64,000 bases of DNA from Eonycteris spelaea. Taxonomy: Eukaryota > Chordata > Mammalia > Chiroptera > Pteropodidae. Both the position numbers and the translations under genes were made by a program. Location: positions 62,001 to 126,000 of the forward strand of contig PUFA01000647.1 of the NCBI GenBank assembly GCA_003508835.1, written 5' to 3'. The notes under the pieces are model-generated. The model saw only the letters and a program-made list of their open reading frames with translations. It ran no database searches and was not told where the DNA came from. Below are positions 34,895-35,965 of the stretch, in pieces. Position 1 is the first letter of the stretch. Each line of letters starts with the position of its first letter.

Positions 34895-35690
34895 AGGAAA
34901 CGAGCCTGGCTGCAGAAACGGCCTCCGCTAGGGGGCTACAGCGGGAGGATTCCCGGGGGCGTCGCCTGCTTCCGCCACCGCCTCCAGTGAAAGTCCCTTT
35001 TGGGTCCAGCTGCCACAGCAACTGAGCTCTCTCAGACTGGGCGGGGGACACCCAGGTCTGCGTGGCCCCCGTGCCGCCACGCCCAGTGGCCGCTCGAGCC
35101 CTGCGAGCAGGGGGAGGAGCTGCCGCCAGTGGAGGCGGAGGAGGTAGAGGAGGCGGAGACGGAGGAGACCGCGGCGGAGAAGGCGGAGAGGAAGGTGGAG
35201 GCGGAGGCGGAGGAGAAGGCGAAGGCGAAGGTGGAAGGGAAGGTGGAGGCAGCGGGGAAGGTGGACGCCACCGGGAAGGTGGAGGCGGCGGGGAAGGTGG
35301 ACGCCTCCGGGAAGGTGGAGCCGGCAGAGGGACCGGGCCGCCGGGTTGAGCTCAAGCTGGAGCCCGAACCCGAGTCGGTACGGGAGGCGGAGCAGGAGCC
35401 GAAGGGGGAGTCCAAACAGGAGCTGGAGGATGAGAACCCAGCGCGGAGCGGCGGCGGCGGCGGCAGCAGCGACGAGGTTCCTCCCCCAACCCTTCCCTCC
35501 GACCCTCCGCGGCCCCCCGATCCCTCTCCGCGGCGCAGTCGTGCCCCCCGCCGGCGACCCCGGCCACGGCCACAGACCCGGTTCCGTACCCCGCCGCAGC
35601 CTAGGCCACGGCCCCCGCCCCGGCCCCGGCCCCGGCGCGGCCCCGGGAGTGGATGCCTGGATGTGGATTTCGCTGTGGGTCCACCAGGCT
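34895..35690. promoter_or_regulatory. USP27X: CpG island over the USP27X 5' end
   Basis: GC and CpG content rise sharply from about 34,900 and peak through the Glu-rich, Gly-run and Pro/Arg-rich coding stretches, falling back after about 35,690. The flanks on both sides are CpG-poor, so an unmethylated promoter island is the natural reading. I see no convincing TATA box close upstream of the open frame, so the transcription start cannot be placed from sequence alone. Part of the GC richness is due to codon choice in the low-complexity extension. Confidence 0.7.
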
Positions 35691-35965
35691 GTTCCCACGT
35701 GAACAGCTTTAAGGTGGGAGAGAACTGGAGGAAGGAACTGCGGGTGATCTACCAGTGCTTCGTGTGGTGTGGAACCCCAGAGACCAGGAAAAGCAAGGCA
35801 AAGTCGTGCATCTGCCATGTGTGCAGCACCCATCTGAACAGACTCCACTCTTGCCTTTCCTGTGTCTTCTTTGGCTGCTTCACGGAGAAACACATTCATG
35901 AGCACGCCGAGACAAAACAACACAACTTAGCTGTAGACCTTTACTATGGAGGTATATACTGTTTT
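34991..35965 (+). CDS. USP27X: In-frame N-terminal extension of USP27X, probably started at a non-AUG codon
   Basis: The frame of USP27X is open from just after a TGA at 34988-34990 to the conventional ATG, 325 codons with no in-frame ATG. From 5' to 3' it encodes an acidic Glu/Ala/Lys-rich segment, five GKVEAA-like hexapeptides (35237-35326), a Gly/Ser run, a Pro/Arg-rich tract (about 35485-35645), then from 35687 a USP22-like ZnF-UBP starting GCSHVNSFKVG. The zinc-binding core includes SCICHVC, HSCLSC, HIHEHAETKQH and YCFMC. Its close match to USP22 and USP51 argues that it is translated protein, not 5' UTR. Possible near-cognate starts include TTG at 35000 and CTG at 35120-35122, which has G at -3; the sequence cannot decide between them. 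In the family this domain docks the DUB onto ATXN7L3/ENY2. The domain match is seen; translation and the start site are inferred. Confidence 0.65.
35237..35326 (+). repeat. Five-copy 18-bp coding minisatellite in the USP27X extension
   Basis: Five consecutive 18-bp units encode GKVEAA, GKVDAT, GKVEAA, GKVDAS and GKVEPA in the USP27X frame. The units are in phase with the codons, so gain or loss of a unit keeps the frame open. The flanking sequence has more degenerate KVEAEAEEKAKAK-type copies. Confidence 0.85.

What the first reader, a model, noticed from the sequence alone, without database searches (positions are those of the whole stretch)
34991..35965. USP27X encodes a complete upstream ZnF-UBP in frame but without any ATG
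Seen: 325 open codons upstream of the conventional ATG, no in-frame ATG, a TGA at 34988-34990, and a USP22-like ZnF-UBP from 35687. Known: in USP22 this domain anchors the DUB to ATXN7L3/ENY2, and USP27X and USP51 are reported to use the same partners. Inference: the physiological protein is a longer form, up to about 760 residues, initiated at a near-cognate codon such as CTG 35120 or TTG 35000. That would mean a 438-residue model misses the adaptor-binding domain.
Basis: partly seen in the sequence, partly recalled or inferred. Interest (0 to 1): 0.75.

Follow-up and report, generated by a model that had tools for sequence, protein, structure and literature searches.

The report
Known CTG-started long form of USP27X
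The database version of this ubiquitin-removing enzyme starts in the middle of a zinc-binding domain; the real protein very probably starts further upstream at a CTG instead of an ATG, which was already published for the human gene.

Summary
An open frame of 325 codons without ATG runs from TGA 34988-34990 into the 438-codon USP27X frame and encodes a USP22/Ubp8-type ZnF-UBP. The domain is not wholly upstream: it spans about 35672-36016, and the annotated ATG 35966 lies inside its last CxxC. The idea is not new: held papers report a human 636-aa, ~72 kDa USP27X from an upstream CTG, seen with a C-terminal antibody and knockout lines, with no ~50 kDa form in the lines tested. CTG 35357 (AAG CTG G; 641 aa, 72.5 kDa) fits: Leu in 12 of 12 long orthologs, 198-204 residues before the annotated Met; the published human figure is 198. 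Six out-of-frame ATGs precede ATG 35966, which has a poor context. Met codons that start USP22 relatives have become GTG 35675 and CTG 35657 here. The window is not human. Codon-level dN/dS, ribosome footprints and the human DNA could not be examined.

The parts
34988..34990 (+). TGA, the in-frame stop that bounds the open frame upstream
34991..35050 (+). first part of the open frame, holding TTG 35000; its frame is not shared with the meerkat, horse, rhinoceros and two Myotis models
   Evidence: protein letters compared by eye with window frames
35051..35356 (+). Glu/Lys/Ala-rich repetitive, CpG-rich stretch, in frame with USP27X in several orthologs but frame-broken in the hamster model near 35145; probably mostly 5' leader
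35120..35122 (+).
35357..35359 (+). best candidate start codon CTG in context AAG CTG G (641 aa, 72.5 kDa); Leu in 12 of 12 long orthologs
35357..35965 (+). 203-codon N-terminal extension: acidic, then Pro/Arg-rich linker, then most of the ZnF-UBP; no Met in this stretch in 12 of 12 long orthologs
35672..36016 (+). ZnF-UBP domain (Ubp8-like fold); Pfam core 35813-35995
35657..35659 (+). CTG aligned with the second Met (MDAEL) of a placental USP22; Leu in 12 of 12 long orthologs; weak context
35675..35677 (+). GTG aligned with the first Met (MSPAGCSH) of frog, marsupial and platypus USP22; Val in 10, Leu in 2 of 12 long orthologs
35430..35948 (+). six out-of-frame ATGs (35430, 35653, 35661, 35817, 35898, 35946) that scanning ribosomes would meet before ATG 35966
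35966..35968 (+). annotated ATG, context TGTTTT ATG T, inside the last CxxC of the ZnF
35966..37282 (+). 438-codon annotated USP27X frame with the UCH catalytic domain (PF00443)

Best explanation
The locus is the USP27X gene of a placental mammal, a USP22 retrocopy (retrocopy: recalled). Scanning ribosomes start at CTG 35357, in a strong context, and make a ~641-residue, ~72.5 kDa protein with a whole Ubp8-type ZnF-UBP in front of the UCH domain. The start codon of USP22 was lost (the aligned codons are now GTG 35675 and CTG 35657) and a CUG further upstream took over. The annotated ATG is an internal Met codon inside the zinc finger and is hardly reached, because it follows six out-of-frame ATGs and has a poor context. 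Shown here: frame, domain, conservation, codon contexts. Taken from papers on the human gene: CTG use, 72 kDa size, ATXN7L3/ENY2 partners. Inferred: that the published CTG is the homologue of 35357, and that the ZnF serves adaptor docking as in Ubp8.
For: ZnF-UBP in frame and across the ATG. 16 Cys/His columns invariant in 28 of 28 aligned sequences, 15 of them before the ATG (in the wider set of 90, 8 of the 16 are invariant and the other 8 at 90% or more). Among the 12 long orthologs: Leu at 35357 in 12, no Met from there to the annotated Met in 12, extension 198-204 residues (window 203, human published 198); ZnF part before the ATG 87-92 of 93 identical, level with the annotated part, e.g. 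Elephantulus 87/93 against 407/438, Sorex 92/93 against 400/438. 72.5 kDa computed against 72 kDa published. Six out-of-frame ATGs before 35966. A published C-terminal antibody with knockout lines sees three bands of ~72-85 kDa and no ~50 kDa band.
Against: Only protein models of other species were at hand, so no codon-level dN/dS, and Leu does not prove CTG. Long models are a selected sample: proteins annotated with 438 aa are left out, and the hamster and mouse models did not give the linker in frame. The stretch 35051-35356 is also in frame in most of the 12, so a start further upstream is not excluded. P0002 (unnamed source) begins with Met at the place of window GTG 35129: either a gene caller's reading of GTG or a true upstream ATG in that species. 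No in-frame CTG of the window gives exactly 636 aa. A cross-reacting protein overlaps the middle band in the antibody paper. Some reports see a smaller form with commercial antibodies or in the cytosol. No unusual hairpin follows the CTG (z 0.16).
Confidence: 0.8

Rival explanations
1. Translation starts upstream of 35357, at CTG 35120, GTG 35129, one of the seven AAG-GTG-G codons at 35195-35315, or TTG 35000, giving up to ~720-760 residues alone or beside the 641-residue form.
For: Frame 0 homology reaches to about 35051 in 7 of the 12 long models (P0004-P0008, P0010, P0011); all seven GTGs at 35195-35315 stand in AAG-GTG-G; P0002 starts with Met at the place of GTG 35129; the published endogenous bands run from 72 to 85 kDa, and 720 aa computes to 80.7 kDa.
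Against: 35120 is Pro in 9 of 12; the hamster model P0016 changes frame between 35143 and 35149; by eye the Ursus (flagged low quality) and Sorex models leave the frame upstream of about 35160-35190; five models run across ~35050 in another frame; the antibody paper saw three bands of the same sizes from the over-expressed long form.
Confidence: 0.1
2. The extension is reached from an AUG in an upstream exon of a spliced transcript, not by non-AUG initiation.
For: All 11 long ortholog models from named species begin with a Met from upstream sequence, and two of them (Ceratotherium, Myotis myotis) share the same one, MKGVRAAIGA.
Against: The 11 models have 10 different beginnings and look like gene-prediction repairs; the window has ACG in place of the shared Met; PMC10770416 calls USP27X a single-exon gene; papers report a CTG start.
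Confidence: 0.06
3. The 438-residue protein is the real product, and the extension is a 5' leader with a relic of USP22.
For: Database annotation as given in PMC8863773; some antibodies report a smaller form; the short form acts like the long one on Bim and RIG-I signalling, and HA-USP27X of a paper that describes 438 aa co-precipitates ATXN7L3.
Against: ZnF as conserved as the annotated frame over placental orders; in neutral simulations of the ZnF part at 0.2 substitutions per site the best of 2000 reached 0.83 identity against 0.935-0.99 seen, although at 0.1 the best reached 0.95; poor ATG context behind six out-of-frame ATGs; no ~50 kDa endogenous band in several cell lines.
Confidence: 0.04

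Closest known systems
Human USP27X long form (USP27XL / USP27X-72, 636 aa, CTG start; Atanassov 2016 as cited by PMC8863773 and PMC7029883)
   Same: Same gene, non-AUG CTG start, ZnF-UBP in the extension, ~72 kDa
   Different: The window is another mammal; extension 203 instead of 198 residues; exact human codon not seen here, because the original paper is not held
USP51
   Same: ZnF-UBP plus UCH behind a Pro/Arg-rich N-terminal extension; keeps a segment absent from the placental USP22 aligned here
   Different: 9 of the 10 USP51 proteins aligned start MAQ or MAH; homology of its N-terminal extension to that of USP27X is weak (z 0.5-4.0 in 9 comparisons; in 8 of 9 at least one of 300 shuffles beat the score)
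USP22 / Ubp8 of the SAGA DUB module
   Same: ZnF-UBP then UCH; SAGA Ubp8 chains fill the first 19 Foldseek places
   Different: Starts with ATG close to the ZnF; the homologous positions in the window are GTG 35675 and CTG 35657
Other non-AUG mammalian starts (POLGARF, EIF4G2, named in PMC9789052)
   Same: Conserved near-cognate initiation
   Different: USP27X does not occur in the main text of that survey

Membership tests
USP22/USP27X/USP51 (Ubp8) deubiquitinases | UCH catalytic domain with the catalytic Cys (C87 of the 438-aa numbering) | tested here: met
   PF00443 E 1.8e-64; C87 present
USP22/USP27X/USP51 (Ubp8) deubiquitinases | N-terminal ZnF-UBP | tested here: met
   Met for the extended frame, not for the 438-aa model; fold matches Ubp8
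USP22/USP27X/USP51 (Ubp8) deubiquitinases | Binding to ATXN7L3/ENY2 | not testable with these tools
   Literature passages only
Genes with conserved non-AUG N-terminal extension | No in-frame AUG between the upstream stop and the annotated start | tested here: met
Genes with conserved non-AUG N-terminal extension | Near-cognate codon in strong context, kept in relatives | tested here: met
   CTG 35357, AAG CTG G; Leu in 12 of 12 long orthologs. Codons of relatives not seen
Genes with conserved non-AUG N-terminal extension | Protein-coding constraint on the extension | tested here: met
   Protein level only: ZnF part 87-92 of 93, linker 85/109 (Sorex) to 106/110 (P0002) identical; no dN/dS
Genes with conserved non-AUG N-terminal extension | Ribosome footprints or peptides at the non-AUG start; effect of changing the codon | not testable with these tools
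   Not in the passages that I saw; a search for USP27X with 'ribosome profiling' listed 2 papers, unrelated by title

The most novel reading that the evidence does not exclude
USP27X is an obligate non-AUG gene through placental mammals: the USP22 retrocopy lost its AUG (GTG 35675 or CTG 35657 now stand in its place), a CUG about 100 codons upstream replaced it, and the annotated 438-residue AUG is an internal codon that is essentially never used, so that clinical variant calling misses about 200 coding codons.
Probability: 0.55. Interest if true: 0.45.

Novelty: already known. Interest (0 to 1): 0.22.

Why it matters
A 2024 study of intellectual-disability variants (PMC10770416, passages) works with the 438-residue model, which starts inside a zinc finger. 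Variants in about 200 upstream codons would be read as untranslated, and constructs lacking the domain may misreport partner binding. The biology itself is published, so this is an annotation problem more than a discovery.

Tried and rejected
TTG 35000 and CTG 35120 as starts: rejected on frame and codon conservation. CTG 35423: Pro in Dasypus, Leu in 11 of 12; kept as less likely. CTG 35657: Leu in 12 of 12, but weak context (TGC CTG G) and 61.5 kDa. Hairpin behind the CTG as a help to initiation: 35368-35447 folds no better than shuffles (z 0.16); the stretch holding the CTG, 35300-35379, folds somewhat better (z -1.43, 16 of 200 shuffles as good). ATG-free leader: 0 ATG in 34763-35429 against 4.0 expected (P 0.014), but in 35051-35429 composition alone explains it. 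AlphaFold2 on the 641-residue protein failed (mean pLDDT 33); the ZnF alone gave 78 and 74 in two of five models, the other three 46-48. Homology between the extensions of USP27X and USP51: not shown. A first tblastn script returned nothing, apparently because of a wrong option, and was repeated. Rfam: no match at the gathering score. Species: no match to the Alu and other lineage-specific SINE patterns typed, except short unspecific ones; closest of the 438-residue proteins compared is that of Glossophaga mutica with 4 differences, P0002 and Ursus with 5; a bat is possible, not established.

Rows dropped: the 12 long orthologs are P0002-P0011, P0013, P0014. Hamster P0012 (unrelated N-terminus, ZnF part 84/88), hamster P0016 and mouse P0015 (frames) and the 438-residue proteins P0021 and P0026 were left out of the counts. 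Proteins are clustered at 90% identity, and only the best 120 of 1351 and of 126 hits were listed; a third search listed 74 of 74 and gave no further long USP27X.

Full report

Is it chance? Openness alone is weak evidence: 1 of 2000 Markov sequences stays open, but the GC-rich opposite strand is open as well over 332 codons. Conservation is strong evidence. In 12 long USP27X proteins (P0002 unnamed, Ursus, Suricata, Equus, Ceratotherium, Cynocephalus, three Myotis, Dasypus, Sorex, Elephantulus) the 93 residues just before the annotated Met are 87-92 identical to the window, level with the annotated part (400-433 of 438). Neutral simulation of that part at 0.2 substitutions per site never exceeded 0.83 in 2000 runs; at 0.1 the maximum was 0.95, so the argument needs the recalled fact that placental orders differ by more than 0.1-0.2 at neutral sites, or the internal comparison with the annotated part.

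Where does it start? In-frame CTGs upstream of the ZnF are 35120, 35357, 35423 and 35657. 35357 has the best context (AAG CTG G), is Leu in 12 of 12, and gives 641 aa and 72.5 kDa. The distance from this Leu to the annotated Met is 198-204 residues in the 12 orthologs, 203 in the window; the human figure in print is 198. That the human CTG is the homologue of 35357 is my inference; the original paper (Atanassov 2016) is not held. 35120 is Pro in 9, Leu in 1, gapped in 2. Upstream of about 35050 the window's frame differs from that of five models (Suricata, Equus, Ceratotherium, Myotis myotis, Myotis daubentonii), whose SESPFWVQL stretch runs straight on into HPRSAWPP, while in the window these lie in frames 1 and 0. 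The hamster model P0016 changes from frame 0 to frame 2 between 35143 and 35149. These are gene-model proteins, so frame statements are second-hand. Against a clean answer: the stretch 35051-35356 is in frame in most of the 12, seven GTGs there stand in AAG-GTG-G, and P0002 begins with Met at the place of GTG 35129, which may be a gene caller's reading of GTG or a real ATG.

Why not the ATG? Between CTG 35357 and ATG 35966 stand six out-of-frame ATGs, and the ATG itself has T at -3 and T at +4. No Met occurs between these two points in any of the 12 orthologs.

Evolution. USP22 of platypus, opossum and two frogs starts MSPAGCSH, of a skink MSPPAAGCSH; the aligned USP27X residue is Val in 10 of 12 and Leu in 2 (Dasypus, Sorex), GTG 35675 in the window. 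A placental USP22 (P0032) starts further upstream and its second Met (MDAEL) aligns with Leu, CTG 35657 in the window. Whichever Met was the parental start, it is no ATG now. That USP27X is a retrocopy of USP22 is recalled; PMC10770416 calls it a single-exon gene.

What is known. PMC8863773 (passages): human USP27XL, 636 aa from a CTG, 198 more residues with the ZnF-UBP; a C-terminal antibody sees three bands of ~72-85 kDa, assigned to USP27X with knockout lines although a cross-reacting protein overlaps the middle one; no ~50 kDa form found in the lines tested, with the caveat that it may exist elsewhere; long and short forms act alike on Bim and in apoptosis, the long one seeming more nuclear. 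PMC7029883 (passages): USP27X-72 with 198 more residues acts like the short form on antiviral signalling reporters. PMC6298403 (passages): 72 kDa, translation upstream of the AUG; an AUG-started protein not formally proven, but a shorter cytosolic form is seen. PMC10770416 (passages): describes a 438-aa protein, HA-USP27X co-precipitates ATXN7L3, and the extension is mentioned as occurring in some cell types. PMC8329007 (passages): USP27X and USP51 form DUBs with ATXN7L3 and ENY2. PMC9789052 (passages): survey of non-AUG extensions without USP27X in the main text; its supplements could not be looked up here. PMC10687032 (passages) was used for oligos only.

Verdict. Observation right, core interpretation right but already published, proposed start codons and length probably wrong, species taken as human but not so. 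Added here: the annotated ATG lies within the zinc finger, CTG 35357 is the conserved candidate, and the parental AUG has decayed. I did not find these three points in the passages I saw, but the original paper is not held, so I claim no priority for them.

Noticed in passing
window 21136-21606, minus strand: 156-codon open frame resembling ferritin light chain by eye (recalled), with a sub-threshold Pfam ferritin match (E 0.0021, 18.4 bits against a cut-off of 24.5); probably a processed pseudogene.
   Followed up: partly
whole window: Not human: human USP27X oligos from three papers mismatch in 7 of 9 cases, and no Alu was found with the patterns typed; of the 438-residue proteins compared the closest is that of the bat Glossophaga mutica (4 differences).
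   Followed up: partly
window 36044-36088: USP27X and USP51 keep a 15-residue segment (ASTSTEVSHQQCSVS in the window) that skink, frog, opossum and platypus USP22 have but the placental (Desmodus), killifish and lamprey USP22 aligned lack: the retrogene may preserve an older USP22 splice form.
   Followed up: partly
window 34601-34672: Two ortholog gene models start at the Met of MKGVRAAIGA and a third has it internally; the window has ACG there (34607), in the same frame but cut off from USP27X by stops.
   Followed up: no
window 34928-35926, minus strand: 332-codon antisense open frame over the CpG-rich 5' part, no Pfam match; probably a by-product of GC content.
   Followed up: partly
proteins P0012 and P0016 (Cricetulus): Hamster USP27X gene models that carry PF01780 in front, apparently annotation artefacts.
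   Followed up: no
protein P0002: Unnamed 699-residue USP27X, 125 members, begins with Met at the place of window GTG 35129; whether this is a true ATG was not settled.
   Followed up: no
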